From positions 48,865,348 to 48,929,347 of the forward strand of contig NC_134102.1 in NCBI RefSeq assembly GCF_000715075.1: a stretch of 64,000 bases of DNA. Direction: 5' to 3'. Under the pieces are notes generated by a model. The model did not search any database and was not told the origin of the DNA. It was given only the letters and a program-made list of their open reading frames with translations. Shown piece after piece: positions 5,911 to 52,884 of this stretch. Position 1 is the stretch's first letter. Each line of letters starts with the position of its first letter. The position numbers were made by a program, and so were the translations under genes. This stretch comes from Nicotiana tabacum. Its lineage: Eukaryota > Streptophyta > Magnoliopsida > Solanales > Solanaceae.

Positions 5911-6980
5911 TCAGAGATTGGAGATACCGGAGTGGAAGTGGGAGCTCATCACTATGGATTTTGTGGTAGGCTTACCACAGACCTTGAAGAGATACGACGC
6001 AGTTTGGGTTATTGTGGACCGGTTGACTAAGTCTGAACACTTTATTCCAGTGGTGACTTCCTATTCCATAGAGTCGTTGGCTCAGATCTACATCAGTTCA
6101 CATCGCAGTTTTGGAGAGTAGTGTAGTGAGAGTTGTGCACTCGGGTTGAATTGAGTATAGCATTCCATCCTCAGATGGACGAACAGTCCGAGCGCACTAT
6201 TTAAGTCTTGTCGGATATGTTACGAGCCTATGTTATAGATTTTGTAGGTTCGTGGGATCATTTTCTTCCATTAGCATAGTTGCCCTACAACAATAGCTTC
6301 CAGTTGAGTATTCAGATGGCTCTTTATGAGGCCTTGTATGGGAGGAGATGTCGTTCTCCGATTGGTTAGTTTGAGCTTGGGGAGGCTAGGTTATTGGGCA
6401 CTGATTTAGTCTGTGATGCCTTGGAGAAGGTGAAGGTGATACAGGAGCGACTTCGTACAACACAGTCCAGGAAGAATATTTATGCTGATAGGAAGGTTCG
6501 TGATGTTACATTTATGGTGGGTGAGAAGGTTTTCCTCAGAATTTCACCCATGGAGGGCGTGATGAGGTTCGGAAGAAGGGCAAGTTGAGCCCTCGGTATA
6601 TATTTGTCCTTTAGAGGTTCTTGAGTGAGTTGGAGAGGTGGCTTACAGACTTGCATAACCACCTAGTCTATTAGGTGTTCACCTAGTGTTTCATGTTTCT
6701 ATGCTATGGAAGTATTTTTGGGGACCTGTCATATATTTTGGAATTCAGCACTGTACATCTAGATGGGGATTTGACTTATGATGTGGAGCCGGTGGCCAAT
6801 TTGGACTGGCAGGTTCAGAACTTTTGGTCAAAGAATATAGCATCAGTGAAAGTTCGTTGGAGAGATCAGCCGGTCAAGGAGGCTACTTGGGAGGATGAGC
6901 AGGAGATGCGGAGCAGATATCCACACATATTTGGGACTCCAAGTACGATTCTAGACCTATTCGAGGACGAACGTTTGTTT
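5911..6980 (+). pseudogene. Chromovirus integrase with C-terminal chromodomain, broken
   Basis: Frames show IPEWKWELITMDFVVGLP and VWVIVDRLTKSEHF of the Ty3/gypsy integrase core, then (other frames) AFHPQMDEQSER, YEALYGRRCRSPIG and ADRKVRDVTFMVGEKVFLRI. The C-terminal chromodomain follows from about 6830: SVKVRWRDQPVKEATWEDE. This order is typical of Tekay/Del chromoviruses, where the chromodomain guides insertion to chromatin. About 30 codons around the second catalytic Asp region are missing near 6085-6110 (IYI jumps straight to the FTSQFW region), and there are several stops, so it cannot be active. The 5' part of the element was separated by insertion of the LTR ending at 5910. A polypurine tract and LTR start follow. 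Confidence 0.85.
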
Positions 6981-6992
6981 AAGAGAGGAGAA
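6960..6992 (+). other. 3'-end hairpin (TTCG-AGGA-CGAA) and polypurine tract
   Basis: TTCG AGGA CGAA at 6960-6971 can form a four-base stem with an AGGA loop. It is followed by the purine-rich run AAGAGAGGAGAA at 6981-6992, directly before the LTR start TGTAAAACTCGG. The run is placed as the plus-strand primer (PPT). The hairpin matches those before three other LTR starts in the window. Confidence 0.7.
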
Positions 6993-7405
6993 TGTAAAAC
7001 TCGGAAAGTCATTTCGTGTATTGTAGACTCATTCCCCTACTTATTGCCTCTTGTATGTTCATTTGTCATTTTGTGACTTTCCGAGAGGGTTGGATTGGTT
7101 TCGGTGATGTTTCAGAGTGAATTGGGACACTTAGTCCCCAGGTTGGAAGCTTAAGTTGGAAGAGTTGGCTGGAGTTTAACTTTTGTGTAGACGACTCTGA
7201 AATTGAGTTTTGATGGTTCTGATAGCTTCGTATGGTGATTTTGGACTTAGGGGTATGTCCGGATATTGATTTGGTTGTCTGTAGGTTGGTTTGAGGCTTT
7301 TTGGCGAAAGTTGAAAAGTTGAAGGGTTGGAAGGTTGAGAGGTTTGACCAAGAGTTGACTTTGTTGATATCGGGTTTGGATTTTGGTTTTGGGAGTTGGA
7401 GTAGG
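6993..7405 (+). repeat. 3' LTR fragment of the chromovirus
   Basis: Starts TGTAAAACTCGG right after the polypurine tract; the family form is TGTAACACCCGG. Its text reappears in reverse orientation at about 61850-62220 (for example CCCGATATCAACAAAGTCAA on the plus strand there), so both belong to one LTR family. It stops near 7405, where Athila-like pol coding begins with no LTR end, which marks a rearrangement or deletion junction. The open frames on both strands here are LTR sequence, not genes. Confidence 0.75.
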
Positions 7406-7995
7406 TGCATTGTGTCATCTGGATGCATGTGTTTACATCAAAAGAATGATCAATTTTGAACTTCTATATAGACCAACTGGGCCACCCCCCAAGCCGTCTA
7501 TCAAAGAAGCTCCTAAATTGGAACTCAAGCCCTTACCCTCTCATCTTCATTATGCATATTTGGGTGTTGATGAAACTTTACTTGTTGTATCTTCTGAGTT
7601 ATATGTTTTGAGGAAAGAAAAGCTACTTCGCATGCTTAGAGGGCACAAGCAGGCGATTGGATGGACCATGGATAACACTCGTGGTATTAGCCCAGCATTT
7701 TACCTGCATAAAATTCTCATGGAGGATGGGCACAAACCAAGTGTGGAAGACCAATGCTGCTTGAATCCAGTCATGAAGGAAGTGGTAAGAAAGGAAGTCA
7801 TAAAGTGGCTCGATGCAGGTATTATCTTTCCCATCTCTGATAGCAAGTGGGTAAGTCCAGTACAATGTGTGCCTAAGAAGGGTGGAATGGTGGTGGTCAT
7901 AAATAATAATAATTAATTAATCCAAACTAGGGCTGTCACCAGTTGGAGAATTTGCATTGATTACTGGAAACTGAATAATTCTACTAGAAACTATC
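7406..7995 (+). pseudogene. Athila-like pol: N-terminal part of reverse transcriptase
   Basis: From about 7480 the frame reads PPPKPSIKEAPKLELKPLPS, the linker before RT in Athila elements, then HKQAIGWTMDNTRGISPAF and KWVSPVQCVPKKGG of the RT fingers. After a short low-complexity AATAATAATT insertion that brings a stop near 7914, RT resumes with WRICIDYWKLNNSTRNYH. The frame is cut at 8000 by a solo LTR and continues after it with a 5-bp target duplication. No gag, protease or 5' LTR of this element is present upstream, so it is 5'-truncated at about 7405. Confidence 0.88.
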
Positions 7996-8704
7996 ACTTC
8001 TGTCACGCCCCGACCTCGGGGAGAGCGGGCGGCGCTCAACCGAGATGACCCGGCCGAGCAAGCCTTCTAGATTTCCTTCTACCCAACACACCCATAAATA
8101 AAGAGAAGGTAAACTTCATTAATTAAAACCAAGAGGGTTCATGAACAACACTAATTCCATCACCATTAGTTACTTTATTTATAAAGTCTCAAAATACATA
8201 CAGTTTCATAGTTGAAGTGGAATATATAATACACATACGACATTACTATCTTGACCTTTCAAATACCAATACACAACCCCCTCCATATCTACGGAGCCTC
8301 TAATAGATACAAAAGAGTATAATGATAGTGCAGGCAATAAAGCTCCGGCTATACCTCAAAACATAATACACATACAACAAAAGATGCACGACCCCGAAAT
8401 GAAGTGGGGCTCACCAAGCCAACTGGGAAGAGAGTGTACCGCTATCACTGGTCAATGCCCTCCCCTGTGGAACCACCTGCATCTATTAAAGATGCAGTGC
8501 CCCTGAAAACAGGGATGTTAGTACATGTCGAATAGTACTAGTATGAAAACTAAACACCTATGCAAGAACTTGGAAATACAACATGAATATGATGAATCAT
8601 GGTAACAATAGAAGTCTTAGTTACCAATTAAAGCCATAGTAAATTTATTAAGAGCTTTCAATAACATTTATAAATTCTTAAGTCTGGGATCCTCTACAAC
8701 TACC

Positions 8705-8985
8705 TTTACACAAAGTGGCCATGCCGCCTCACCCCAACGTATGCGGGTGGAGGTGCAATCACAATACCAGAAACTCTACACAAAGCGGCCCTGCCGCCTC
8801 ACCCCAATATATGCGGGTGGAGATGTATTCACAATGCCACAAACTCTACACAAAGCGGCCCTGCTGCCTCACCCCAATGTATGCAGGTTGAGGTGTATTC
8901 ACAATATCACAACTTTACATAAAGTGAACCCGCCGCCTCACCCCAGTGTATACGGGTGGAGGTGTATTCACAATGCCACATTTCA
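8705..8985. repeat. LTR minisatellite, 70-bp period, four copies
   Basis: Copies of a unit containing ACAAAGCGGCCCTGCCGCCT and ATGCGGGTGGAGGTG start at about 8711, 8781, 8851 and 8920, a period of 70 bp. The same unit, reverse-complemented, forms arrays in the solo LTRs at 50014 and 57171. The apparent ORF across it is an artefact of the period. Confidence 0.9.
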
Positions 8986-9894
8986 AATTCCCAAAATGAT
9001 AATAGTTTGTACAAAAGAGTTCCCTTTTAAATTAACCATTTGGCGCCTTTGGCCTTAGCAAGTGTAGGTTCATAAGGTTTCATCATGTGAGAAATAAGTG
9101 TTTAATCACATTGATTTCATACAAGATCTTCTTCCCAAAAGGGGTATAACATAATTAAGTCAAAAATAGAGAATCATTAACACACGAGGGTTCTAACACG
9201 TTATGCCAATCGGCAATCAATTTTACTAGTTTGAATACCCCACATCAATAGCGTTTCAAGTTCGACTACACGTGATAGAATTTTACAAGGATTCAGGAAT
9301 TTCGATACTAGAAGAATATTTTAGCCTTCATACCTCGCTTTGAGCTTTCCTTAATTCACTACACAGTTCGGAAAATCCTATCTACTTCAATCTATTTTGA
9401 GACATAACAAATTGAACACAATTTAGGAAGATATTCATGGTTTCAGCTCATTTGAGCATTTTATCAAACACTAGGTGTGCGAATTTGATTACAAGGTTGT
9501 TCAACAAGATTTCCTTCACTCCACAACTAATTCAATACCAAGCGTTTACTCATACTAGTTCAATTACCTCCCCAGCATCCTCATAGCTACATGCATGCAT
9601 AAATAACAACTCTCATACCCAAGAATCATACTCCCAATTACCCATCTTCTACCTAAACTCAAAATTGAAGACTAGGGTTAGAACCTTACCTCTTGGATGA
9701 AAATCTTGTGAGATTTCTTGTTGAATTCCAAAGCTTGGACAAGATGTTGATGAACAAAGTACTTGGGGCTTACTTCTCTCTCTATAGAATACTCCCCTCT
9801 TCTCTCTAAAATGATAGGTTTTTGCCTTCAAAATGAGCCCCAAGGGCTTTTAATCAAAATATGGTCGGGTCAAAAAATTAGAAAAATGAAGCCC

Positions 9895-10195
9895 CGACAT
9901 AGATCTGCAGTCCGCATAATGGCCCTCCGGAACTGGGCACTTTTGCCTCACTCTGCGACCAGTCTGCGGTCAGTAGACCAATTCTGCAGTCGCATAATGT
10001 GCCACAGAAGTCCCCTCTGGAAATTTTCATGCTGGATCTGCGATGGGTTGTACGGTCCGTGAAATAATTATACGGCCGCATACTGGACCGCATAATGGTC
10101 CGAAAATTTGCCCAGATTTCTGCTTCAGTCTGCGGCAGATCTGCGGTCCATAGATCATTTCTGCGGCCGTAGAATGGACCGCAGAAATGCCCTAC
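9895..10195. repeat. Cluster of palindromic CTGCGGTC / GACCGCAG words in the LTR
   Basis: Short GC-rich words recur in both orientations, such as TCTGCGGTC, TCTGCGGCC, GACCGCAGA, GGACCGCATAATGG. They can pair with each other in many ways. The cluster lies within about 430 bp of the TTACA end, which is the upstream (U3) end if the LTR reads on the minus strand. Confidence 0.75.
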
Positions 10196-10329
10196 ACTTC
10201 CAAAAAATTTCTTCAACTCCCCAACGCATTGTTCAACCCAAAAAATCTGAACCGTGTCAACGCATAAGTCTATCTCGGTATCACGAAACCCCGAATTTTG
10301 GGTGAAATTTTTCTGGACCTTACAACTTC

Positions 10330-11300
10330 CCCCTTCATTTTATTGATCAGATGCTAGATAGGTTGGCCGGACAAGACTACTATTATTTCCTTGAAGTATA
10401 TTTCGTTTATAACCAGATCTCAATTACATCAGAGGACCAAAAGAAGACCATCTTCACTTATCCTTATGGCACTTATGCTTTTAAGTGAATGCCATTTGGG
10501 TTGTGCAATGCACCTCGGACTTTTCAAAGGTGCATGATGGCAATCTTCACTGATATGGTAGAAAAAATTGTTGAAGTATTTATGGATGATTTTTCAGTCT
10601 TCAGGCCATCTTTTGATGAATGCTTAACGAATTTGAGTAAAGTGCTTGCCAGGCGTGAAGAGACGAAATTAGTGTTGAACTGGAAGAAGTGCCATTTTAT
10701 GGTACGAGAGGGAATTGTACTCGGGCACAAGGTGTCCAAAGATGAGTTGGAGGTGGATAAGGCAAAGGTGGATGCAGTTGAAAAACTATCACCTCCAATC
10801 TCTGTCAAAGGAGTCAGAAGCTTTTTGGGACATGCAGGTTTCTATCGTAGGTTCATTAAAGATTTCTCTAAAATTTTTGCTCCCTTGTGTAGTTTGCTTG
10901 AGAAGGAGATGCCTTTCAAGTTTGATGAACACTTCTTTAAGGCGTATAAGGAGTTGAAAAAAAGATTGGTGACTGCACCAATTATCACCGCCCCAGACTG
11001 GCCGTTTGACAAATTTAGGGCCTACATGGTGGGAACTAAAGTCGTCGTCTACATAGACCATGTAGCCGTCAGGTATTTATTTAAGAAAAAGGATGCTAAG
11101 CCTAGACTAATTCGTTAGGTTCTTCTCTTGCTAGAATTTGACGTGGAAATTGAAGATTGAAAAGGGACAGAAAATAAGGTGGCAAAACATTTGTCGCGCT
11201 TGGAAACTCACGCACATGTTGAGGAAGGGGACAAAATTCAGGGAAGTTTTCCTAACGAGCAATTGCTAGCCATCACAGCAATTGGAGAAGACAGTGAGTG
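10330..11300 (+). pseudogene. Athila-like pol continued: RT palm/thumb and partial RNase H
   Basis: Coding resumes after the solo LTR: MLDRLAGQDYYYF, a stop, then MPFGLCNAPRTFQRCM and VFMDDFSVFRPSFDECL. MDDFS carries the catalytic DD pair of RT. The thumb/connection follows (KCHFMVREGIVLGHKVSKDEL, FLGHAGFYRRFIKDFSKI). At about 11000 APDW joins straight to FDKFRAYMVGTKVVVY, so about 50 codons of RNase H with its first acidic residues are missing. The RNase H end (VRYLFKKKDAKPRLIRW) is followed by a frame stop and then VAKHLSRLE. Non-functional. Confidence 0.9.
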
Positions 11301-11309
11301 CAAGTAGGA

Positions 11310-11845
11310 AGGATTGAGCTAGCAATCTAGATGATGCTCTATGGGCATATCACACTTCACACAAAACTCCAATTAGCGCTTCACCATACAGGTTAGTATA
11401 TGGAAAGGCTTGTCACTTGCCTATTGAGCTTGAGCACAGGGCATATTGGGAAATCAAGAAGCTCAACATTGATATGGATCGAGCTGGGGAAAAATGGATG
11501 TCGCAACTAAATGAGCTCGAAGAGTTTCGACTGCACGCATATAATAATGCGAAGTTGTATAAAGAGAAAACAAAGAGATGGCATGACAAATACATCTTTC
11601 GTCATGAGTTCGAACCTGGTCAAGCTATTCTATTGTTCAATTCTAGGTTGAAGCTCTTTCTTAGGAAGCTCAAGTCTAGATGGTCGGGTTTATTTGAAGT
11701 AGTGTTGGTTACGAAGCAAGGAGTTGTTGAGCTAAAGGATCCCGAAAGCAATGGCACATTTTTAGTCAATGGGCAGAGAGTGAAACATTCTTGGGGTGGT
11801 GGCTTTCATCTTCATAAAACTTTGATAGAATTGGTGGATGCGTGA
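11310..11845 (+). pseudogene. Athila-like integrase, C-terminal remnant
   Basis: From about 11318 the frame gives [17 protein letters not shown] and [20 protein letters not shown], then a long open stretch of 142 codons ending [17 protein letters not shown]. This is the end of the integrase core and the C-terminal domain of Athila integrase. The zinc-binding HHCC part and the first catalytic Asp residues are absent, so about half of integrase was deleted between RNase H and here. The ORF ends with TGA at 11843. Confidence 0.88.
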
Positions 11846-13170
11846 GGGAACGTGTTGCATTGTGCCGCGACATTAAATCAGGCGCTTGTTGGGAGGCAAC
11901 CCAATGTTTATTGCTTTCGTAGTTTAGTTTCCTTTTTTTTTAGTTAAAGTAGAGTTTTTCTTGTTTCTTTGTAGTCATAGAAATCATATGTAGAATGGTG
12001 TGGAATGTGTAAAATAGATACATTAAGTGCTCATGAGGGTCAGGGATTTCATCTATTCAAAAAAAAATAGCAAAAATCAGCGCCCCACTATGCCTGGGGC
12101 AGAAAAAAACAGAACCGAAAAAACCCCCAGTGCTAGGCCTAGCGCAGCGCGCTGGGCTCGGGGTCACCAGGTAAGTTTTATTTTTTTTCTTTCTTTTTTG
12201 TTGTATTATTTAAACCCACTACACATATAACCAGACCCAAATACCCACCTACACTCACATAATAACTCATACCTAATAACCCAACGCATTCCCACTCTAA
12301 TTAAAAATCACTCTAACCCCTAAACCCGTCTCTCTCTCTCTCTCTCCCATATCTCTCCTCTCAAACCCCCTCTGCCCGCTAGACTCTCCCTCCCTCTCTT
12401 AATTTTTCTAATTTCTCTCTTGATTATATCTTCAATCCCCCAGGTATGTTCCCCTTTCTCCCTTATTTTTCTATTTTGTAAGTTATAATCTTATCCCCCA
12501 ACCCAAATTCCCCCACAGTTGCTTCTTAGAACTTATGTTCTATGGTGGGTTGCCCTAATGTGCAAGAAATTGGTTGTTATGTTATATACGGAGTAGTAAA
12601 CTAGAATTCCCTCTACTTCATTTAAAATTTGGGAGGGCCACCATGTACCATCATTGTTGAGTCGAGTTGCACACACTTAATGCCCATCATGTGTTTGATA
12701 AAATGCCAAGTGTAGTTATATGTGATGTCGGGCTAAGTGTGGGTGTTTGGGGGTGATTTTACATAACCCAAAGCTTGTCTTTAATGTTCACATGCCATAA
12801 CCACACCACCCACACCATGTATCTTGTATTATGTATGTTGTATCACTTTGTAAGAATTAGCTAGTGTAGTGTATTAATTGTAGAGATTGAGGACCATGTG
12901 TTACTTCCTTGCACTAAGGCTAAGTCCCTTCGCCATGTTCGACTACTTGAATTGTGTGGAATAGTTAGTGAATTACAATTGTGTGGTATGGGGAAGTCTT
13001 GAGTAACCATCTCCTTGTGGTGCAACATTTGTGCACTTTGAACCACTATTGTGAGTAGATTACATAGAGCCTTCGGTTTTAAGTGTGGGGTCATCTTTGA
13101 CTCTCACGGTAACCTTGGGGCGAATTTCTTGATTCATTATCACATTCATGTTTATCGTGTGTAGGTTGCT
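11846..13170 (+). other. Inter-ORF region between pol and env-like ORF, with a hairpin
   Basis: Non-coding. At 11889-11904 the sequence TTGGGAGGCAACCCAA forms a perfect 5-bp stem (TTGGG/CCCAA) 44 nt after the pol stop. From memory of plant Athila/Tat elements, this motif is common at this place. A GC-rich patch with inverted words lies at 12084-12166, a CT-rich run at 12330-12420, and AAGTGTGGG-type motifs at 12734 and 13081. In Athila elements a downstream ORF is thought to be made from a spliced or subgenomic RNA; I cannot place the splice sites here. Confidence 0.6.
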
Positions 13171-14437
13171 ATGGCTCGTGACAGTGCTACCAAGGAAAAG
13201 GAGTGGGGAAGTCCTATACTACTACTCGCCCTCCCAAAAAGCGCAAGCAAAGTGAAGGGTCATCTCAGCAAGCTAAAGGGAAGCAGGTTACCAACGGGTC
13301 AAGGAGAGAACCATCAGGACCACGACCTCACTTGGATCTGGTTCGGGAGGATGCCATCCAGTGGTATCACAGCTTTGAGCCATATGGGCGGTACGTCTCT
13401 GAAATGGGAATCAACGTGAAAACTCTGAAAAAGAATTTCCCGGATGTGCTTGCCCGGTTGAGAGATATGAAGATGGATAAGTTCCTTGAGTGATCGGGGC
13501 ATGAAAAATTGATCATAGTGAGGGAACTCTATGCAAATTGGAATGGGGATCAGTTCATGTCATGGGTTCGAGGAAATGAAGTTCCATTGGACAAGGTGTC
13601 CTTATGCAAATTCTTGGGAGTTGATTGCCCTAACCCGCGCTGGTTGCAAAAGTTTGTCAAATGCCTAAGCTACCAGGCTATACATCACACTTTATGTGGC
13701 ATCGATTCTAGTGCAAAGTGGACTAAGACTAAGGGTGATGCCCATCTTGAGATGATCCGCTTAGACTTCAACAAAATTGCAAGGGTGTGGCAAAACTTTG
13801 TGTAGGACAGACTTGTGCCGGTTGAGCACAACAGTGAATGCACTCGAACCCTAGTGTGTTTGATATTTTTCCTAATGACTGGGCGACCCATCAATGTGGG
13901 CAAGATCATGTTAGGAGAGATGGCCCACACACGATTTGGGCGAAAAATAAAATGATTCTTCTTTGGCAACTTGTTGACACAATACATGCTCTCTCGGGAG
14001 GTGCCTGAATACCCTGGCTATGATGAGGTTAAGGAGGCACCAAAGCGGTTCATGGACATTACTTCCTTGTTGGTACGTCCAAGCTGAGCCAAGCGGCGCG
14101 GAATGAGATAGACGAAAACTTCAATAGATATTTATATAGCTCCCTGAATGTGATAATGAGAAGGTTGGGCACGACGAATGAGGAGCATATGCATCTACGC
14201 AATGATCTGTACAGTTCTTTAAAAGAAATGTTGGGAATCGCACCTGGCAGTCCCATTCACCAGTCAGAGGATGAAAACACCCACAAAGGCTCAGATGATA
14301 AGGATGATATTGGTGCTGACGCCACGGGGCCAATGGCCTTGGTTCCCCTGGGAGCGGATGATGATGAGCCCGGAGCTGCGGCTGGTGGGCATTATGAGGA
14401 GGAAGGATCCGAGTATGACCCCCATAGGTCAGACTAG
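13171..14437 (+). pseudogene. Athila env-like / plant-transposon-protein ORF, broken
   Basis: Starts ATGGCTCGTGACAGTGCT (MARDSATKEKE), then shifts frame into a basic stretch RPPKKRKQSEGSSQQAKGKQ that looks like a nuclear-localisation-type segment. Next come IQWYHSFEPYGRYVSEMGIN, LIIVRELYANWNGDQFMSWV, VPLDKVSLCKFLGVDCPNP and TGRPINVGKIMLGEM. The order resembles the 'putative plant transposon protein' domain in the ORF downstream of integrase in Athila elements, often called env-like. The acidic tail ends EEEGSEYDPHRSD. There are at least three stops or frameshifts (near 13240, 13490 and 13803), so it is a pseudogene. No clear membrane segment is visible. Confidence 0.7.
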
Positions 14438-16279
14438 AAGGGAGTTCTTCTTTCCACCTTACTTTGCTTTAAATTCTTACATGCATCGGGGACTATGCAT
14501 AATCAAAGTGTGGGGTGGGAGAACTACTTTCTGTAATGTAATTGTATAAAACTGTTTCTTTCTATTTTATTAATTTTTCTTTTAGAAACCCGTAGTAGAC
14601 ATAGTCTAGTTTCAAAAAAAATAAAATTAAAAAAAATCAGAAAAAGCTCAAACTTTTTCCGACGATGGATCTTTTGGACAGTTTTCCCTAAGGGATTAAA
14701 GTCCGATTAAAAACACCAAAAAGAATGTTTTTAGGATTGGTTAGGTAGTATCCCTTAGTTTTTCTTTGGGTGCCGATTCTTTTCCAAGGGTGTAGATTGA
14801 ACCGGGTACTTTGTTTTTTTTAGGAGTAGGATAGGAAGAAAACTGAGTTGCTTTGAGGTACATGTTGACATGTTTCGTGCTGGAACATTAAGCTATAGCA
14901 TGTGCTCTGTCTTCCTATTGTATTTGATTTGAATTGTGATACCTAAGTAATATAAATAGCCTATTCTGTGACGCCTTTTCTCAGTTGTTTGACTTGTATG
15001 TCACCTAGTGCGTTATTGCTTAAAATTTCTCAATTATTTGTGCCTGCTTGACTTGAGAGTTGAACAGAACCATCTTGATTGAGTCATGTGCAATGTGTGT
15101 ATGAGGATTTGTGTTATTCTGTGATATCCTGTGTATTCTAGAACTTACCCCATGTGTTAATCGAAGTGAAATCATTAAGTGTGCTAGTCTAGGAGATGAC
15201 GTAGGCGTTTCTTGCTTGATCATAGATGTGTTTGTCACTTACAAATAAAATTTTACCGTTGCTAGCCCTGTTGAGCCTATAGACCTTTTCTTTGGCACCC
15301 ACATTACAAGTTGTATCCCTATTTGTTCTTAATTTGAGCTTGTTGAACCTTTACCTCAGGAGGCACTTAGTCGCTAAAAGAAGTAAGGTGAGAGATTGGG
15401 AAGTAGCTTTAGAGTGAAACCATGAAAGGACCCATAAGGTGCACTAAAGTTGTGAAAAATGCCACTAGCCGATGAACCTTGATGTATGGAGTGTGTGTAA
15501 AAAAAGATAGAGAGAAAAGAAAAAAAGCAAGAAAAAAATACAAATAATGAAAAAACAACACCTCCTCATCTTACTAATTCGTGCTAGCGGGGATGTAGAA
15601 GTGCTTAATTGAAGGAAGTGCTATGTTGTATATGGTGTGTGGCGAGTGAATTGGTTGAGAAGAAAACGTGCTCGATTCTTGAGTGTAGTATATTAAAGTG
15701 CTTAGGAGGGTTGGTCACTATTTTTAAATGTATCCTACCCATCCCTTAGCCTACATTACAACCCATAAAGTCCTAATTGATCCTAGACTTGGCTAGCTTA
15801 GATTAGTAGAGATGTACACTACGGGCAAGCTTATGATACGATACGGGATGCACATGAATTCTTTGTGAGAGTGAGCAACATTTTTTTCAATTGTGTGATG
15901 TCCTTAAATTATGTTCAAAGTCATACTTGAATGTGTGGACTATGCTATATTCAGTCTCTTGTTTGTTGGTGAGGGCACATGATCTCATGACGGATTGGTG
16001 ATGTTGTGAATTTCTCCTTTTGGGTGAGTGCGTGACTTGAGGGTGCTTAGTGAAAACGAGTCAGCTCTTAAGGTAGGGTGGTTATGGATAGGTTATTTGG
16101 ATTGATTGAATTGAAATGTTTATACTTGGGCATGTTCAAAACGGGAAGAATGTGAATTTAGTATATTCATGCTTGATTGTCGGTATCGATCATAGTCAAG
16201 GGTAGAGTGTATAAAAAAGAATGAATTGCTCCTCTCTAGTTGAGATGCGTACGTTGTTGGGGTGTAGTTGATAGTCCCA
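14438..16279 (+). other. Long 3' untranslated region of the Athila-like element
   Basis: About 1.8 kb without coding. It shares blocks with the 3' region of the minus-strand element at 20984-27507, for example CGACGATGGAT followed by TTTCCCTAAGGGATTAAAGT at 14660-14705, matching the complement around 23780-23825. An internal purine-rich motif lies at 14505-14518. The A-rich run at 15490-15550 is simple sequence. Confidence 0.65.
14505..14518 (+). other. Internal polypurine-tract-like motif AAAGTGTGGGGTGG
   Basis: It sits 67 nt after the env-like stop and repeats the AAGTGTGGGGT found just before the 3' LTR at 16304. The gag-protease element has the same motif at the same distance from its last stop (23952-23970, minus strand). 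A second plus-strand priming site is a possibility, not shown. Confidence 0.45.
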
Positions 16280-16316
16280 TTGCTCGAGAACGAGCAAGAG
16301 TCTAAGTGTGGGGTGT
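16280..16316 (+). other. 3'-end hairpin (TTGCTCG-AGAA-CGAGCAA) and polypurine tract
   Basis: TTGCTCG AGAA CGAGCAA at 16280-16297 is a perfect 7-bp inverted repeat with a 4-nt loop. After 19 nt containing AAGTGTGGGGTGT the LTR starts with TGATACTTAG. The same arrangement is at 22391-22410 in the gag-protease element. Confidence 0.75.
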
Positions 16317-17597
16317 TGATACTTAGCTTAAAGTATGTATATTTATATGCATATTGCCTTGCATTTTACTCATGTTTCGTAGATTTCAGATGTGAAATGT
16401 GATGATTTGTGTTAATTCGTGGTATTTTTATGTGTAGGGATCATCCGGAGGTAATGTGGGATGAAGGTTTGACATTGGAGGCAAAAAGGAATGAAATGGG
16501 AAAAAGGCCACAGAGTAGCGCCCAGGCTAGCGTGGTGCGCTACCTGTGGCGTAGAAGGCAGAATCTTAAAACATCCCAGTGCCAGGGCTAGTGCCCCACG
16601 CTACCCTGGGCGCTGGTGACGGGAATATCTCCTCACTTGACTGGGACAAGGTTATTTCAGCCCAAGACCCCCCCCCCCCAAACTCGTATAAAAGCAAGCT
16701 TAAACCTATTTTGGGAGGGGAGACGTCAGTTTGAAAGAGAAACACAAGTACGAAACACTCGGGAGCATGGAATTCATCAATTCTTCCACTCTTCATCTAG
16801 TATTCATAGTTTTATGTTTAAAAACAATATTTTGGTTATTGTTATGAACATGAGTGGCTAAGAACCTCTTATTCTAGGGTTATGGGTCATTCTTGGCTAT
16901 TGTAAATTGATGGTTGATTGTTTTGCTTGACTTTATCATATTAATTTTTTTATTCAATCTTGCACTTAATTATTCTATTGCGTAGCTAACAATAGAGTAC
17001 TATCTACGAATTTATAGTTGAACTCGAAAGTGGGAATTATAAATTGAATATAGGATTGAATAGAGTAACTTCTTGAATTCGGGCATCGGAGAATGGATTC
17101 GTGATTAGGATAGGCATATTCTAGTTGCCTGCCTTAGTTATTTTTGCAAGAAAATATACATCTGTTCTTGTCAAGTTTGATTCTATAGACATATAGTATT
17201 AGATTGTCTTGAATAGGTGCGCGAAGCGTCGAATGAACTTCACAAGCATAATAAACCCTGCTAATCAACAAATTAGATAAGTTAAGTGATTACATCAACC
17301 CGAAAAACGCAATAGGAGAGACATTATTCCCATACCCCCAGAATATCCCCATCTCATTGAATTCTTTCTAAGTGTTTGTTTGCTCTACTTGTGATCTTAT
17401 TTTCTTGCTTGCCTATTAGTTCATAGTAATTTAGTTACAAAAGTCATAATCATCTTATTCACACTCACTTGAGCATTAAATTTATAAATATCTTAGATTG
17501 GACAATAGTTGATCATAAATCCTCGTGGGAACGATACTTTCTAATCACTTTATTACTTGTCGGTCGTGTATACTTGCGTGTGCGTTTGGACCTAACA
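16317..17597 (+). repeat. 3' LTR of the Athila-like element, 1281 bp
   Basis: Begins TGATACTTAGC directly after the hairpin/PPT and ends GTTTGGACCTAACA, i.e. TG...CA. A TATA box is at 16687-16694. GC-rich inverted words (AGCGCCCAGGCTAGCG, CCCTGGGCGCTGG) lie just upstream at 16512-16620, followed by a C9 run. What follows at 17598 is integrase coding of a different element, so the Athila element was inserted into it; a target duplication cannot be checked because the 5' end is missing. Confidence 0.8.
16687..16694 (+). promoter_or_regulatory. TATA box in Athila-like LTR
   Basis: TATAAAAG, about 370 bp into the LTR. It follows a C-run and the GC-rich inverted words, a plausible place for the LTR promoter. 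Placement is by motif only. Confidence 0.6.
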
Positions 17598-18240
17598 GTA
17601 CGAACGTATGGAAAGTCATAGATGACTGGGTATTCCTAAATATGTCAACTACGAAAGGCGTCATGAGATCCGGTAAGAAGGGCAAGCTTAGCCCGAGAAA
17701 CATGGGGCCTTACAAGGTCATTCGGCAGATAGGCAGAGTAGCTTATGAGCTTAATTGACTCTAGAGTTAGAGTCAGTCTATTATCCATTCCACAGAAGTG
17801 CACTGGAGACCCTTCTTAGGTTGTCCCAATAGATGAAGTTCAGATTACAAATGATCTATCCTACGAGGAGATTCCATTGGATATCTTAGATCATAAATCT
17901 TAAGGTTGAAGACCAAAAAGGTATCCTCCGTGAAGGTTTTATAGAGAAGTAAGAACGTGGTAGAGATGACGTGGGAAGCGAAGAAATAAATGAAGTCTAA
18001 ATATCCCTACCTATTTCAAACTGAAGATATGGCTCGAGATGGGATATTCAAACCAGTAGGTCGTGAGGTGAGCTCTTATTTTTGACTTGCAGTACTTATG
18101 ATTGACAGCCGTGTGAGGCCAAGTGTTGTTATTTATAGACATTGGCCCTTTGTGGCATGTATAGTATATTTTCTGACTGCGTGCAGGTTGGTTTTAGTCC
18201 AGTGTACAGAGGAGACTCTGGCGGAATTTTCGCAAGTCTC
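17598..18240 (+). pseudogene. Second chromovirus: integrase C-terminus and chromodomain remnant
   Basis: KGVMRSGKKGKLSPRNMGPY and IRQIGRVAYEL match the C-terminal barrel of Tekay/Del integrases. Degenerate chromodomain coding follows at about 17905-18030 (SSVKVL, then MTWEAKK and MKSKYPYLF). It lacks everything upstream: the Athila LTR ends at 17597 immediately before it. Several stops make it a pseudogene. It differs from the 5911-6980 copy and is not its continuation. Confidence 0.82.
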
Positions 18241-18464
18241 TAAGAGAACATTTGACGATGAATGTTCCTAAGGGGGGAAGGATGTTACACGCCGAACTTT
18301 CAAGTTGGAATGTGTCAATGTGAATCAATTTAAGCCGGAGAGTTTAAGGACCCTTACCAAGATAATGATGAGTTAAAATAGGTGTTAATGAAATATCGTG
18401 AGGGTTGGAGACCGATAAGCGCATCAGTCAACATTCGAGGACGAATATTCCAAAGGGGGAATGA
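18241..18464 (+). other. Doubled chromovirus 3' end: two hairpin-PPT-LTR starts 182 bp apart
   Basis: First set: GAACATT-N8-AATGTTC inverted repeat at 18246-18267, purine run AAGGGGGGAAGGA, LTR-like start TGTTACACGCC at 18283. Second set: ATTCG AGGA CGAAT at 18433-18446, purine run AAAGGGGGAATGA, LTR start TGTTACACCCC at 18465. The 18283-18464 piece is probably a truncated LTR head followed by a second 3' end. Unequal recombination or template switching between related elements would explain it. Confidence 0.6.
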
Positions 18465-20983
18465 TGTTACACCCCATGTTTTCGTACGTAAAAGTATGTC
18501 GTAAGTCAATTAATGTAATCTTGAAAATGAGATCAATTTCGAAAGTATATAAAGTAAGTTAATCATGTTACCTTGTAGGTTACAAATATATACAATCATG
18601 AACAACAAGTACCACGAGGGTTGGAAGGTTTAGAAGCTAAACGAATTGAAGAAAATAAGTTTCGTTGAAAGTCGACAAGTTGGGTATATAATAACCCATA
18701 TTTATGAGGTGAGACAAGGGTGCTTAACATGATAAGAAGGTTATGTTATGAGTTATTTTAGTCGTATGGTAGTTGTGTGTTATGTTTTGAATTCAAGCAA
18801 AGTGTGGAACAAAAGTCGATGAAAGTCGTCACAAGTTACGGTCATAAGTTTTACTAAATTTTGGGTCTAAGATTACTGAGCTTTTCTCCACATATACTTG
18901 GATTTACGGGGTGAACCACCAAGAAAATTGAAGATCTATGTGTCTAGTTTCCAACACATTAAACCATTTATCGATACAACACCGGAGCAGAGAGATATTC
19001 ACATTTTTGCGACACTGCATAAGCAGCTCCCTATGGGACCCATTTAGGCGGTGGTTGACCTACTTCAATTTAAAAATGATTTGGACGACCATTCTTGCTT
19101 ATTTTGTGACCCAACTTCGTCCCCACACTACCTGTGCTTGAAGTTGTGTGTATGCTGGTTTGGTTGCATTATTTGAGCAAGATACTACAAGAGGAGAGTT
19201 GAAATAGTTTGAGATATTATTGTTCCTAATGGACTGTTTTGGAAAGGTTTTTTCCATGAACCTTAAATGGTTGGCAACCTTCGAAAATAACTTGTTTATG
19301 ATGTTGTTATTATTAATATATAGCTTACATGTCGAACTTGATGTTGGTTTGTGAATAAGAAAAGAAAGGACAACATAACAATGGAGAATTGTACTTGTTG
19401 TTGTTGGATTATTGGGTTGTTTGAGTGTAAATTAGGAGATGAATAGGAGGTTGGAAGTCCTCCGATTGTACTTATATCATTCTAGACATGTTTATAAGTT
19501 AAATAATGAATAATAATTGGGTTGAAGGGCACTAAAAAGATTCAATCCGAGGGTCTCCATGGTATGTTGATGACTAGTTAGTGAAATATTTTGTACCCTA
19601 TTGTTGATGTTGTTCTTACTGTATTGCTCTAGTTTTTGTGGTTGATGTGTGGAGTTGGAGGAAGTAAAATTTATAGGGGAGATACTTCCCAAATTTATAT
19701 AGATAAGTTACTAACTTAGAATATTCAAATTAAGTTCCTTCTTAGCATTAATCATAGACCTTGTTGTATACTGTAAATTGAGTTGTTTTATGGATTGCTT
19801 GGAAAGTATTGAGGAGACAAGGAGATTGAGGTATATTAAGGCTAAACCTTTCCTTTATTTTGGCATAATTCTGTAACTACATGCAATTGATAATGAGACA
19901 TAAAGAGAAGTTTGTATTCCTGAATTTATGTACATTATCCTAGTCTCATAAGTTACAGTATTCTCCCTTATCGGGACTTTATATTTTGTTGAGTATTTTC
20001 TTCTTTCAGTCAAGAAAGCAGAGGGTTTATATATATATATATACAGTATTACAGTATTTTCAACACCATCGAGTTATAATCAGGGGGCAGGCCCCTATTA
20101 GGCAACCTCAGATCATATGGTAAGTTATATACCAAGCCTATTGTGGTTGAGCGCCTATGAGAGAGCCTAGAATGGCCGAGTTACCGAGCCTAGTATGACC
20201 GAGCGCCTACGAATGAGCCTACTACGGCTAAGCAATTACGCGTATAGAGCCTTATAGGGTCGGACAACTATTTTACTTACTATATTGAGAGAGTTGAATC
20301 AGTATCAGCAGGTAAGCATATCTTCATATCATCTTTACTCCCAGTTACTTTTAGTTAATATATTATCAGTTCAACTTTAGCTTTCACTTATTTTATTGCC
20401 TTACATACTCGGTACTTTTTTTGTACTAACGACCCTTTTATCGGGGAAGCTGCATTTCATGCCTGCAGGTCTTGATAGACAGACGGATAGACCTTCCCAG
20501 TAGACAGAGCCAAACATCAGCTTTATTGGTAAGCTCCACTCCCCTAAAGTTACCATGTCTAGAGTTTGGAGTCCATTTTGTATATACAGATTTGATGGGT
20601 AGGTCGAGGCCTTATCCCGATCATGATACAGCTATGTTATCTCTAGAGGCTTGTAGATGAGTCATGTATATGTTGTATGTCAGTATTGTGGCCTTGCCAT
20701 CCCTGTGTAAATGTTCAGTTTAGTATTGCAGATGTTCATGGCAGCCTCATTGTCCTGCACCGTTATGTATATGAGCTTTTGGGTATGTTTACCCCTCATA
20801 TGAGATAGAGGTTATTTTCACATGATTTAGAGTATGGCCCCGTTGGCCTTGATTGGTTTTGTCATCTTGTAGGTAAGCCCCGTCAACCTAAGTTGAGGGA
20901 TACCCCTCCAAAGTTCATAGTTACAAAGTGGTACACTCGGGCTGAGTATGGCACCGAGTGCCGGCCACGCCTCCTTGGGTTTG
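18465..20983 (+). repeat. Chromovirus 3' LTR, first part (last 10 bp at 27513-27522)
   Basis: Begins TGTTACACCCCATG after a polypurine tract. It is interrupted at 20983 by the element 20984-27507 and ends after it with GGGCATGACA at 27522, about 2.53 kb in all. A TATATAATAA at about 18686 may be the TATA box. Its 3' half is repeated in the LTR copy that ends at 29415. It contains an imperfect repeat at 20120-20265. Confidence 0.75.
20120..20265. repeat. Imperfect tandem repeat in LTR
   Basis: Units of roughly 40 bp containing ACCGAGC, GAGCGCCTA and GAGCCTA words. The second LTR copy has a longer version at 28475-28690 with near-perfect units (GAGCGCCTATGAGCAAGCCC). Confidence 0.7.
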
Positions 20984-22372
20984 TGACGAGCTTGAAACAC
21001 ACACCTAAATTATGCTCGGTAATCAAATATAGTATAGTATAATATCGCATCCACAATGATTGGATTTAAACAGTATTCTCGTAATTTCTAGCTTGGTTGC
21101 TATCCAAGATGATCAACAATTGAGATTTATATGATTTCTAACTAAAATTAACTAAGAGTCTAAAGCTATTGATTAATGACAATCAAAACAAGGAACAAGC
21201 AAAGAAGGTTTTCAATGGGAGAAGATAGGGTTTCGATAGGATAGGTGCAAGATAAATATTTGGGATCTAACTCCAGATAATTCACTCCTAATTTTTAAGT
21301 GAGTCTCTCGAATTCATTTGTTATTAGTTCACACGTTCAGCAAAAACTCCTCTCGCGATTAAGTCTCAAGCTCACGAGATGAACCAATTTAAGCACGTGA
21401 AGATATGCAAGAATGCGTAGTGGATTGGTTTTTAGGAAAACCTCTCTCGATTATCCTGCTAAATAGGTTTAATTAATGATTCAACTAGCCTTTTTTGATT
21501 ACTAAGAAGAATTAATGAACTCAACCAACAATATAATGCAAATATATCGCAAATTATGTCTCTCTCGATTACATTAACAAGTGAATATAGATGCAACAAT
21601 TAAATCATCCAATAATGCTTCAATACATAAAACTAGAGTTATAATCCACAAACAATCATCAATACACCAAATCCATCAGACCCTAAAGAGAACTACTCCA
21701 TAGATATGGAACAATTCATCACAAATATAATTAAAGTATAGGAAAATATAAATTCAATCCAAAATCGGGTCTTGAGTGATGAAGGAATGATGGAACCTTG
21801 TGCTTGTGTTCTTCCAACTCCTCCTTAGCCTCTTTAGGTCCAAAGTATGTCAAAAGTCTAGAAAATAATTTTTTTCCATGTATTTATACCAAGTAGGGTC
21901 GGGCCCAGATGAAACCACCTTCTCCTAGCCGAAATAGGACATTGGCTTTGTAAAAATAACATAGGCGCACCGCATGGGGCGACGTTACATGTGAGGCATT
22001 AGTGGGGATTTCCAGAGAGCTAACAATTTGACAGGCAGCAGGTTTTTGTGCAGCCACGGTGCACCATGCGCTGCCCCACAAGCCGCGGTTGTGGAATTTT
22101 CTCATAGTACGGATTTTTATTGATTTTTGATGTCCAGACTTGGTCCTTGACCACCGAACACGATCCCGGCTTAATCCCTTAGGCTTTTACTCAGACTTCA
22201 AAGCTCCAACTATCTCGAATTAGCTCCACAACTACATAGTTCGGAATCACTCCTACAAGACATAAAACACACAATAAGTGAAAAACGCTACCAATTAGAG
22301 CTCAAACACAAATAAAGTGCAATGAATTAAAGTGCAATAAGCGACTAAACACGTATTTATAGCCTACCATCA
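20984..22372 (-). repeat. 3' LTR of the gag-protease element, 1389 bp
   Basis: Minus strand runs TGATGGTAGGC to CGTCA. A TATA box (minus TATAAATA) is at 21881-21888. GC-rich words (GGCGCACCGCATGGGGCG) at 21963-22090 lie just upstream of it in the minus sense. It is the longer of the two LTRs. Confidence 0.88.
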
Positions 22373-22390
22373 ACACCCTACACTCAAACC

Positions 22391-22410
22391 ATTGCTCGTC
22401 CTCGAGCAAT
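22391..22410 (-). other. 3'-end hairpin (ATTGCTCG-AGGA-CGAGCAAT)
   Basis: A perfect 8-bp inverted repeat with loop AGGA on the minus strand, 18 nt before the 3' LTR. The spacer holds a GAGTGTAGGGTGT polypurine-like run. It is the best-preserved copy of this motif in the window. Confidence 0.8.
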
Positions 22411-44009: not shown

Positions 44010-46717
44010 TGTCATGCCTCGACCTTGGGGAGCAAGATCGACGCTCAAACACCCTTGCGGTGGTCAAGCAAGCCTTTGTTCTATATCTTTCCCATGAGTG
44101 CCCATGCATGATTTAGAAGATCAAAATGAACCATTCTTTTAAAATTGTTGCCTTTCATCAGGTAGAAAATATTTCAAAGTTTATGGAGTAAAATTACCCA
44201 CATGTCATGCATAAGTTTTATAATAGAACATGAAAGAAATAACATATTCCCATGCATACCATCACCCACAACTGTCTACGAAGCCTCTAAGACATCATGA
44301 AATAAAATAAAAAGATGTCGGTGACAAGATCTCAGTTATACCCAAAATAGAAGATAAGTCCAGAAGAAGAGACATGGATACCCCGAATGTAGATGGGGCT
44401 CACCGAGTCCGCTGAGAAGAGAGCACACACCTATCGAGATCATGTGCCACTTGTTAGGGTATCACCTACCTCTATTAAAGATGCAGTGTCTCAGACAAAA
44501 GGGAAGTTAGTACCTGTGGAATAATACTATTATGTAAAGCGGACAGAACAATGTATAAATGTATGGTAGCTCAAAGGAGAGGTAAATAAAGTACATCAAG
44601 AAGCTATGAAACAGGTTATAGAATCATATGTCAAGTCTTATTATGCTTTAGTCATTCTGAACTTCTTCTTGGTTCAAGTGAGCAATATGAGTTACGTGTG
44701 GGATACTAAGTATAATATGTACATACAAAAGATAATAAGACAATGAAATGTGTACATACAAAAGATAATTAAAATGGCACCTATGCGTTTCACCAGGCCG
44801 TCCACAAGCTCACTTTTGCATGTGCTGACTATGCGTTTAAGCAGTCCGTCTATAGCGAACCTTTATTATGCACCTATGCATTCCAACAGGACATCCATAG
44901 GGCTCATCTTTGCATGTGCTGACTATGCGTTTCACCAGTCCGTCCATAGCCAACCTTTACTATGCACCTATGCATTTTACCAGACCGCCCATAGAGCTCA
45001 TCTATACTATGCACCTATGTATTTCACCAGACAGCCCATAGGGATCATATTTACTATAGCTACACACATATGTGTTTCACCAGACCGCCCATAGGGATCA
45101 TCTATACTATGTACCTATGCCTTTTACCAGACCGTCCATAAGGCTCATCTATATTATGCCCCTATGCCTTTCACCAGACCGTCCATAGGGATCATATTTA
45201 CTATAGCTACACACATATGTGTTTCACCAGACCGTCCATAGGGATCATCTATACTATGTACCTATGCCTTTTACCAGACCGTCCATAAGGCTCATCTATA
45301 TTATGCCCCTATGCCTTTCATCAGACCGTCCATAGGACTTGTAACACATGATTATGATAATGACCATGTGCAAGCTCAAAGCAACACGAATACACTACAT
45401 TTGGGGTCATAAGAGTCAATATCATTCGAATACTTCAAGTTCATGTTAATCATGCGGAAGCATAACTTGTTACATTAGCACAGATGTGGAGAATCAATGA
45501 GTAGATTACAATGGTGCATGGGCCCAATTCATCATCTTTAAGGTTCATCATCGTTTATCATAGAAGATCTCTCTTTTATCTCGTTATGTACTTGTCTATC
45601 ATCTTAAGGTCATTAGCTAAGTTCATCATTCTTGGGACTTAACATCAACGTCATTTGAATTTATTGTTTTAAAAGCATACATACTATATTTGAAATTATT
45701 GAAATGCCTTAATTTCAATGTCATGCTTATATGTAAACTTGAACCTCTATAACGTTATCATAATGGAAATATCATTGTATGTGGAACTACAAATGTGAAT
45801 ATATTATATGAATAGCATATAGTTGTTTTCCCCCAAAAGCATTTCATATAAATCATTTCATGAAAGTCTTTTCTTGTCCTTTGGGACATACAATACCTCA
45901 TAATTCTCATTTTGGCAAGTGGCCACATTTCATTGTCATACTATCACTTCCTTTTACTTGTCATGGGTCATCATAAAACATTAGGAATCATTGTTATAAC
46001 TACATGAGTAATAAGAGCTTAAGACACTCGGAATATATCTAAAAAGAGGAGCATAGTGATAGTAATTGAAGCATGAATTGAACTCGTAAGCATTTTGAGC
46101 AGTCAATCGTGCTTGAATTATTTACCAGCAATGAGAATAGAGATGACAATTGAACATGACTTAAGTATGCAGACATTACATAAGTCATCCCTTTGAGTCA
46201 ATTTAACATAATAAGAATAGGAACTCGAACAAACCATGCTTAGAGTTCATGAGGAATTAATGGTATCCGACTCTATGAAGAGAGTTTAGCCAACATACCT
46301 GAAATCTACCCCTTAATGATACTACGATAATCCACCATACTAAATGACTTCAATCTATAATAACAACATCCAAATGACGAACAACTGATGCGTTTGAAAC
46401 TAGACTCGAAGGTCTACGCTTTAGGGACAAAATTCATTGAAATTATTTTTATATTGTGATAGTTATACCCGTTCAAAGTTAGGTGTTGTGCAAATTAAGA
46501 AATCTTTTTCAATTAATATTTCAAACTCGTTCCAAAGAACTTCTCCCCACTATAAACCTCCTTAATGTGTTCCAAAACACTTTCCACATGTATTTTCATG
46601 TCAAAATGATGTGGTTCTATCCCATAGATCTCCTTTAATACTCAAAAATATTACTTCCAATTATCATTGGTGCACTATAAAGTTTTAAATCATTAAAAAA
46701 AATTACAGGATCTTACA
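44010..46717 (-). mobile_element. Solo LTR, 2708 bp, TSD caact
   Basis: Plus-strand ends TGTCATGCCTCGACC and CAGGATCTTACA, flanked by caact at 44005-44009 and 46718-46722. Its 3' fifth (46150-46717) is repeated at 53336-53903, because the tandem duplication starts inside it. Confidence 0.93.
44790..45340. repeat. LTR minisatellite with a 147-bp higher-order repeat
   Basis: About 60-bp units around TTTCACCAGACCGTCCATAG. The block 45046-45192 is repeated almost exactly at 45193-45339, an offset of 147 bp confirmed by TACACACATATGTG at 45061 and 45208. Confidence 0.88.
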
Positions 46718-46722
46718 CAACT

Positions 46723-50013: not shown

Positions 50014-50217
50014 TGTAACACCCGAAAAATTTCAAAGTACTTAAGTGTAAGGCCTGGTAAAATTTACAAAGAAAATAATATTTCATGGTGCCGAACTAGG
50101 CTTACGTGTTTGAGGATTATAGAAATTCTTCGCGGCGAGCTTTCTTGTCGCGGCTCGAACTTTTTGGATTATAATGCATGGGAATGAAAAGGAAAATTTT
50201 TGGCAGAAAAGTGCATT

Positions 50218-50480
50218 TGTACGGTCTATTATGCGACCGCAGAACCACTCTGCGGACGGCATAATGGCCACAGAGTGAGGTAGTTAATTAGGTCAGTTGG
50301 AAGCAACTATGCGGTCGATTATGCGACCGCATAACTGTTATGCGGTGCATTATGTGACCGCATAACAGTTATGTGGACCGCATAGTGACCGCATACACAG
50401 ACAGTTCTTTTGGCTATTTTGTAACCAACTATGCGACCGATATGCGGTCCGTATATCGGTTATGCGATCGCATACCTTGT
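50218..50480. repeat. Array of TATGCGGTC / GACCGCATA palindromic words
   Basis: Many inverted words (TATGCGGTCGATTATGCGAC, CGCATAACTGTTATGCGG) lie within 260 bp, about 200-470 bp from the LTR start. They can fold into multiple hairpins. The same array is in copy 2 at 57378-57640. Confidence 0.82.
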
Positions 50481-52878: not shown

Positions 52879-52884
52879 CTATCA

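What the first reader, a model, noticed from the sequence alone, without database searches (positions are those of the whole stretch)
6960..22410. Same small hairpin with AGGA loop 15-21 nt before the 3' LTR in two different retrotransposon lineages
Seen: TTCG-AGGA-CGAA at 6960 (21 nt before LTR 6993), ATTCG-AGGA-CGAAT at 18433 (18 nt before 18465), TTGCTCG-AGAA-CGAGCAA at 16280 (19 nt before 16317) and ATTGCTCG-AGGA-CGAGCAAT at 22391-22410, minus strand (18 nt before the LTR end at 22372). A fifth copy at 18246-18267 keeps a perfect 7-bp stem with a changed loop, 15 nt before 18283. Two are Athila-type and three are chromovirus-type elements. Stem letters differ while pairing and loop stay the same, which looks like selection for RNA or DNA structure. 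The purine tract lies in the spacer, so a role in plus-strand priming, RNA dimerisation or packaging can be proposed. I recall similar sequences in other plant gypsy elements, but no described function.
Basis: partly seen in the sequence, partly recalled or inferred. Interest (0 to 1): 0.75.

Follow-up and report, generated by a model that had tools for sequence, protein, structure and literature searches.

The report
Conserved hairpin before plant retrotransposon primer
Two distantly related groups of plant jumping genes carry the same small hairpin at nearly the same distance before the purine tract that primes their second DNA strand, and its stem letters change in matched pairs, which suggests a shared part of their copying signal for which no description was found.

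Summary
All five hairpins are at the stated places. The host assembly (4.0 Gb, unnamed plant) holds 14,023, 2,678 and 4,719 exact copies of three stem versions; reversed controls 0. Junctions fetched without asking for a hairpin carry the GAGGAC core in 38 of 40 (chromovirus-type) and 20 of 20 (Athila-type), usually with the loop end 13 nt before the anchor. At least 6 of 7 stem positions pair in 37 of 58, against 3 of 4,362 control centres. Stem letters covary: 0.410 versus 0.238 shuffled, 0 of 500. Against: RNAalifold on the same 58 predicts nothing, decay shows no strand signal (523 versus 471), and in one class the hairpin lies in the last pol codons. Best reading: a cis element of the plus-strand priming module. 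My specific, inferred mechanism: the stem stalls reverse transcriptase so that RNase H cuts near the PPT/U3 border, roughly 14-16 nt away. Ten literature searches listed no description. Other plants and copia elements could not be tested.

The parts
6960..6971 (+). hairpin TTCG-AGGA-CGAA, chromovirus-type element
   Evidence: chromodomain match just upstream, slightly below Pfam cut-off
6981..6992 (+). purine tract before the 3' LTR start at 6993
   Evidence: sequence
16280..16297 (+). hairpin TTGCTCG-AGAA-CGAGCAA, Athila-type element (loop AGAA)
   Evidence: RT and Transposase_32 matches upstream
16304..16313 (+). purine-rich tract AAGTGTGGGG before the LTR start at 16317
18246..18267 (+). 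hairpin GAACATT..AATGTTC with altered centre; in register the loop is ACGA and pairs 1 and 2 are G.U type
18270..18281 (+). purine tract AAGGGGGGAAGG before the LTR start at 18283
18430..18449 (+). hairpin AACATTCG-AGGA-CGAATATT (18433-18446 perfect; one outer mismatch)
18452..18461 (+). purine tract AAAGGGGGAA before the LTR start at 18465
22391..22410 (-). hairpin ATTGCTCG-AGGA-CGAGCAAT, Athila-type element
22376..22385 (-). degenerate purine-rich tract before the LTR start at 22372

Best explanation
The hairpin is a conserved cis-acting part of the plus-strand priming module of plant Ty3/gypsy elements: a 7-8 bp stem with an AGGA loop, then a short T-rich spacer, the purine tract (PPT), and the LTR. 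Shown here: presence at nearly all sampled junctions of two types, near-constant spacing to the PPT, and matched stem changes. Inferred: reverse transcriptase copying the RNA meets the stem base just after it has copied the PPT and pauses. Its RNase H site, about 18 bp behind the polymerase site in HIV-1 RT, then lies near the PPT/U3 border and has time to make the cut that frees the plus-strand primer. The conserved loop would add a binding contact (nucleocapsid or RT), which is also inferred.
For: 38 of 40 and 20 of 20 hairpin-blind junctions have the GAGGAC core at up to 2 mismatches. Loop end to PPT anchor is 13 nt in 28 of 37 chromovirus-type and 19 of 20 Athila-type junctions at up to 1 mismatch. 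The first 30 listed CATTCG copies and the first 20 listed TTGCTTG copies all lie just before a purine-rich tract and an LTR-like start, some degenerate. Mean Watson-Crick pairs: 5.62 of 7 at the hairpin centre against at most 3.12 at any other centre listed. Covariation 0.410 versus 0.238 +/- 0.018, 0 of 500 shuffles; slid versions at most 0.123. Compensated pair-2 version 4,719 copies against one-sided classes of 523 and 471 (pairs 1 and 2 pooled), next to 2,678 of the other version. Stem end to LTR start: modes 17, 18, 16 and 17 nt in the four sets, so about 14-16 nt to a cut assumed 2 nt before TG. HIV-1 RT cuts 18 bp behind the primer end, its RNase H is about sevenfold slower than polymerisation, and pausing at the PPT has been proposed to allow the PPT-U3 cut (PMC3185654, passages).
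Against: No RT pausing or cleavage data; the distance for plant RTs is unknown, and 14-16 nt is a loose match to 18. RNAalifold finds no structure on the unselected 58 sequences. Stem end to LTR lies between 13 and 22 nt in 102 of 107 copies, 23-26 in the other 5, not one exact value. The plus-strand RNA helix is predicted only at mean 0.51 and 0.25 in the two hairpin-blind sets. An Athila-type subfamily keeps a C.T mismatch at pair 2 (9 of 20), and one Athila-type copy pairs at 0 of 7 positions. A pause alone would not need a conserved loop. The authors of PMC3616985 argue that RNA structure at the PPT itself is unlikely to matter because it works as a hybrid (passages). Two of the five whole-structure measures did not exceed shuffles (170 and 293 of 500 reach them).
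Confidence: 0.4

Rival explanations
1. The hairpin acts in the minus-strand cDNA (loop TCCT). After the template RNA is removed, the single strand next to the PPT duplex folds, keeps upstream RNA from re-annealing and marks the 5' end of the primer.
For: Predicted helix probability is higher on the minus strand (0.75, 0.53, 0.99, 0.99) than on plus RNA (0.51, 0.25, 0.92, 0.70) in the four sets, RNA parameters for both. No clear G.U excess on the plus strand. Near-constant spacing to the PPT fits.
Against: Higher minus-strand probability may only reflect that the G-rich PPT competes in plus RNA. No direct evidence of the DNA form; DNA energy parameters were not tried.
Confidence: 0.2
2. It is a Gag/nucleocapsid binding or packaging signal, with exposed purines in the loop read by zinc knuckles.
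For: The loop is AGGA in 52 of 58 (54 of 58 after two registers were corrected) while the stem letters vary. Ty3 RNA localisation and packaging are reported to need both UTRs and POL (PMC11381356, passages).
Against: A packaging signal need not keep a near-fixed distance to the PPT, yet this one does, while its distance from the pol stop differs (211 and about 480 nt in two loci).
Confidence: 0.15
3. It is a relic or part of coding sequence: the conserved GAGGAC reads Glu-Asp in a pol C-terminal tail (FEDE...).
For: In one chromovirus-type class the frame runs through the hairpin to a stop in the LTR start (for example L125, whose upstream letters resemble the chromodomain tail of the 6960 element); the GAG.GAC frame is open over 54 nt upstream in 27 of 38 chromovirus-type copies, other frames 12 of 38 each.
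Against: The same frame is closed in 30 of 30 CATT copies, 13 of 20 Athila-type and 12 of 20 TTGCTTG copies. In two loci with a chromodomain match pol stops 211 and about 480 nt before it. Coding does not predict matched changes such as T-A to C-G, where one side would be F to L and the other silent.
Confidence: 0.1
4. A DNA-level near-palindrome bound by a dimeric host or element protein (transcription factor, integrase).
For: Inverted symmetry in double-stranded DNA; no wobble preference.
Against: Six of seven stem pairs show changes on both sides, while a protein site would be expected to keep its arm letters; the loop is asymmetric and read on the element's plus strand in the sampled junctions.
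Confidence: 0.08
5. Shared ancestry with few independent changes: families inherited different stems, and copies only decay.
For: Most variation is between families, and the CpG-type one-sided variants are about equal (523 and 471). My 58 sequences fall into 15 flank clusters, one of 31. Related sequences can exceed shuffles without structure.
Against: One random copy per cluster still gives 72% paired and 20 double changes at pairs 2-7, against 49% and 7.8 shuffled (maxima 61% and 14 over 500 draws). Pair 7 is A-T in 22 and T-A in 8 of the 38 chromovirus-type copies.
Confidence: 0.05

Closest known systems
Sirevirus (Ty1/copia) inverted repeat around the PPT/3' LTR junction (Bousios et al. 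2010, PMC2829016; listing and passages seen)
   Same: Conserved structural motif tied to the terminal PPT of plant LTR retrotransposons, function not established.
   Different: There the left arm borders the PPT, the right arm lies inside the LTR, and the PPT is in the loop (average arms 28 bp, 19 bp in classic copia). Here both arms lie upstream of the PPT in a 7-8 bp stem with a 4-nt loop, in Ty3/gypsy elements.
Retroviral and Ty3 polypurine tract / plus-strand primer (PMC3185511, PMC3185654, PMC11381356; passages)
   Same: Same place next to U3. A T-rich spacer sits before the purine tract here; a U-rich box in that place in retroviruses is recalled, not looked up.
   Different: No upstream hairpin is mentioned in the passages seen. 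In the Ty3 RNA paper the PPT itself is reported in a base-paired region, with lower probability.
Conserved Hairpin Site of fungal GalEa copia elements (PMC5445492; abstract and passages)
   Same: A hairpin conserved among divergent LTR elements, thought to serve transposition.
   Different: Sits right after the 5' LTR where no PBS is found, with the loop the less conserved part; here the element is near the 3' LTR and the loop is the most conserved part.
Dimer initiation sites of retroviruses, Ty1 and Ty3 (PMC11381356 passages)
   Same: Short hairpin in genomic RNA.
   Different: Those use short palindromes near the 5' end; AGGA is not self-complementary and the position is 3'.

Membership tests
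Plus-strand priming module (PPT) of LTR retrotransposons | Purine tract directly 5' of the 3' LTR, downstream of the hairpin | tested here: met
   junction anchors 24,524 and 4,031 copies with 33 and 6 control hits
Plus-strand priming module (PPT) of LTR retrotransposons | The hairpin affects primer formation | not testable with these tools
   needs an RT/RNase H assay
Sirevirus PPT inverted repeat | Left arm borders the PPT, right arm inside the LTR, PPT in the loop | tested here: not met
   both arms lie upstream of the PPT
Conserved Hairpin Site (fungal GalEa) | Immediately after the 5' LTR, where a PBS is missing | tested here: not met
   located before the 3' LTR
Dimer initiation site | Self-complementary loop | tested here: not met
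   loop AGGA in 52 of 58, 54 of 58 with corrected registers; read from sequence
Packaging signal | Needed for RNA encapsidation by Gag | not testable with these tools
   no experiment
Known Rfam family | Match at gathering score | tested here: not met
   0 matches in the window; fetched loci were not scanned
Conserved RNA structure | Compensatory changes above controls | tested here: met
   score 0.410 vs 0.238, 0 of 500; two count measures not exceptional in the same call
Conserved RNA structure | Predicted without being told the structure | tested here: inconclusive
   RNAalifold: none on all 58, 7 pairs with 5 compensated on 12 mostly intact hand-picked rows
Conserved RNA structure | G.U tolerated over A.C on the RNA strand | tested here: inconclusive
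   523 vs 471 genome-wide, 18 vs 23 in the 58; most such changes look like decay after insertion, so the test has little power

The most novel reading that the evidence does not exclude
A structural brake shared by anciently separated plant Ty3/gypsy lineages: a small hairpin a set distance before the polypurine tract stalls the copying enzyme so that its own RNase H cuts the plus-strand primer at the right place. This would be a determinant of primer selection lying outside the purine tract.
Probability: 0.28. Interest if true: 0.8.

Novelty: new variant of a known kind. Interest (0 to 1): 0.62.

Why it matters
A review of plus-strand priming calls its molecular details largely unknown (PMC3185511, abstract), and the passages of it that I saw deal with the purine tract itself. 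A hairpin of known position, found in two lineages and in over twenty thousand exact copies of three versions in one genome, offers a concrete outside determinant that short RNAs can test. It would also be a practical landmark for finding the 3' ends of plant elements.

Tried and rejected
IMG/VR pattern scan: 27 stretches, none looking like a plant element when I read the letters around the hits, taken as chance; RT query: 12 candidates, none confirmed. Rfam: none in the window. Complement of the loop (GTCCTC) as a 5' partner: 20 hits in the window against 19.3 expected and none on the minus strand between 24 and 29 kb, so no sign of 5'-3' pairing in the 22391 element. Loop pairing with TCCT just downstream (pseudoknot): seen only in some CATT families by eye, dropped. 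Strand inference from G.U versus A.C: no clear signal. Copia specificity control: not completed. Only three hairpin-free purine junctions (L134, L151; L066 8840) hint that other lineages lack it, and their lineage was not tested. Papers: the searches showed no description of this hairpin in the listings (several were cut at 15 or 20 of up to 955 papers); the sequence searches (4, 6 and 0 papers) gave papers that, judged from titles only, look like primer lists, and they were not opened. The finding recalls similar motifs in other plants, as do I; that is memory, not a test.
Full report
What was checked. The window lies in a 4.0 Gb plant assembly. The 20 contigs sampled are 117-222 Mb long, which suggests tobacco; that is inference only. 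The 6960 element has a chromodomain match just upstream, slightly below Pfam's cut-off; the 16280 element has an RT match and, below cut-off, a Transposase_32 match upstream. Linking Transposase_32 to the env-like region of Athila elements is recalled. In the window the count of AGGA-loop hairpins is not above chance, but 3 of 3 lie directly before an LTR start. Three LTR-like starts that follow unrelated DNA show no hairpin before them.

How common it is. Exact genome-wide counts, both strands: CATTCGAGGACGAATG 14,023, TTGCTCGAGGACGAGCAA 2,678, TTGCTTGAGGACAAGCAA 4,719. The reversed patterns gave 0 each time. The first 30 listed copies of the first and the first 20 listed of the third, all on contig C1, all lie just before a purine-rich tract and an LTR-like start, some degenerate. 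In 20 arbitrarily placed 10-kb stretches plus the window I looked for any 4-nt-loop hairpin before a purine tract and TG: 23 were found, with loop AGGA in 4 (one of them in the window) and no other loop more than twice; five Markov controls had none with AGGA among 13-26 each.

Test without asking for a hairpin. I searched the purine-tract/LTR junctions themselves: AAGNGGGGGARNNTGTNA, 24,524 copies, 33 control, and AAGTNTGGGGNGTTGAT, 4,031 copies, 6 control. I call them chromovirus-type and Athila-type; most sampled copies bear that label by the junction alone. Of the first 40 listed places of the former, 38 have the hairpin module (core at 0, 1 and 2 mismatches in 24, 13 and 1); L134 and L151 do not and were dropped from later counts. 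Of 20 places of the latter, 20 have at least the GAGGAC core at up to one mismatch. Of these 20, 15 come from the first 18 listed (I skipped three already known to carry the exact hairpin) and 5 were picked for unusual tract letters. Core-only placement put two copies (L147, L094) three bases off; I corrected those by hand for the alignment and for the pair counts, not.

Pairing and covariation. Mean Watson-Crick pairs in a 7-bp stem are 5.62 at the hairpin centre and at most 3.12 at any other centre listed. At least 6 of 7 pair in 37 of 58 (24 of 38 and 13 of 20), against 3 of 4,362 control centres; at least 5 of 7 in 50 of 58. On the 58-row alignment (54 distinct), 85.7% of cells form a standard pair against 75.0% shuffled. 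The covariation score is 0.410 against 0.238, and 59 cells change on both sides against 28.6, each 0 of 500 shuffles; slid versions score at most 0.123. Two other measures were not exceptional (170 and 293 of 500). Six of seven pairs show some change on both sides, mainly pair 4 T-A or C-G, pair 5 G-C or A-T, pair 6 C-G or T-A, pair 7 T-A or A-T. With one random copy per flank cluster (15 clusters) the result holds: 72% against 49% paired, 20 against 7.8 double changes. At pair 2 the compensated version (4,719) outnumbers the one-sided classes (523 and 471, each pooling pairs 1 and 2) at least ninefold. This is mainly a difference between families, so the number of independent events is small and was not counted here.

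Results against. RNAalifold predicts no structure on the unselected 58; on 12 mostly intact rows that I chose it gives the same 7 pairs, 5 with compensation. One-sided decay is about symmetric (G.U 523, A.C 471; 18 and 23 in the 58), so there is no sign that plus-strand RNA pairing is what is kept in individual copies. An Athila-type subfamily has a C.T mismatch at pair 2 in 9 of 20. One Athila-type copy pairs at 0 of 7. The predicted helix is weaker in plus-strand RNA than on the minus strand. The five window folds are only mildly better than shuffles, and the 6960 hairpin is not in its fold.

Coding or not. In one chromovirus-type class the pol frame appears to run on through hairpin and purine tract, with a stop in the first bases of the LTR (L125, L121). 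The frame that reads GAG GAC is open over 54 nt upstream in 27 of 38 chromovirus-type junctions, but in 0 of 30 CATT copies, 7 of 20 Athila-type and 8 of 20 TTGCTTG copies. In L001 and L008 pol with its chromodomain match (24.5 and 24.8 bits, cut-off 25.1) stops 211 and about 480 nt before the hairpin. L118 and L120 are Athila-type, with RNase H, integrase or RT matches followed by Transposase_32; of L119 one ORF was scanned and gave Transposase_32. Coding may help to keep the sequence in one class, but it does not explain the pairing or the families in which the frame is closed.

Spacing and mechanism. The loop end is 13 nt before the PPT anchor in 28 of 37 chromovirus-type and 19 of 20 Athila-type copies; the anchor-to-LTR part is fixed by my search pattern. 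In the two stem-selected sets the loop end is 22-29 and 26-27 nt before the LTR. A near-constant distance to the PPT, together with differing distances to the pol stop in two loci, ties the hairpin to the PPT/U3 border. From stem end to LTR the modes are 17, 18, 16 and 17 nt in the four sets (stems counted with G.U and one mismatch; 102 of 107 copies between 13 and 22), hence about 14-16 nt to a cut assumed 2 nt before TG. In HIV-1 the polymerase-dependent RNase H cut falls 18 bp behind the primer end, RNase H is about seven times slower than polymerisation, and pausing at the PPT has been proposed to give time for the PPT-U3 cut (PMC3185654 passages). I therefore propose that the stem pauses RT so that RNase H cuts near the border. 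The value for plant RTs is unknown, the match is loose, and the conserved loop needs a further partner. The main rival inside the same module is a hairpin in minus-strand cDNA.

Known or new. The nearest described structure found is the Sirevirus inverted repeat around the PPT/LTR junction (PMC2829016), which has a different layout and lies in copia elements. Diaspora, described as related to Athila and Calypso, has pol stop, PPT and LTR; in the passages seen no hairpin is mentioned (PMC1142308). The passages seen of the Retand, CRM and plant-wide surveys (PMC11963269, PMC3059260, PMC6317226) do not mention it either. Ten library searches listed no description, but several listings were cut short and subscription journals are mostly not held. 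I file it as a new variant of a known kind: a cis-acting hairpin of the plus-strand priming region.

Noticed in passing
window 18246-18465: Two hairpin + purine tract + LTR-start units in tandem, LTR starts 182 nt apart; the first resembles the L054/L060 type, the second the L044/L055 type, so one 3' end may carry a captured or recombined older one.
   Followed up: partly
L079, L080, L083, L086, L087, L088, L090, L091, L092: Athila-type subfamily with a shared C.T mismatch at stem pair 2 while the outer stem is mostly kept.
   Followed up: partly
L125, L121 (hairpin region): In one chromovirus-type class the pol frame appears to end in the first bases of the 3' LTR (stop in TGTAA), overlapping hairpin and purine tract.
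   Followed up: partly
L134, L151; L066 around 8840: Purine-tract/LTR-like junctions without the hairpin, perhaps copia-type; lineage not tested.
   Followed up: no
window 44955-45395 and 51428-58862: Repeats of about 147 nt and of about 69-nt spacing, and a roughly 7.2-kb direct duplication (46150-51974 with 53336-59134), reported by the repeat finder.
   Followed up: no
spacer before the purine tract, L078-L097 and L121-L160: The four bases before the anchor are mostly T-rich in both types (GTTT in 22 of 38; ATTT or GTTT in 11 of 20).
   Followed up: no
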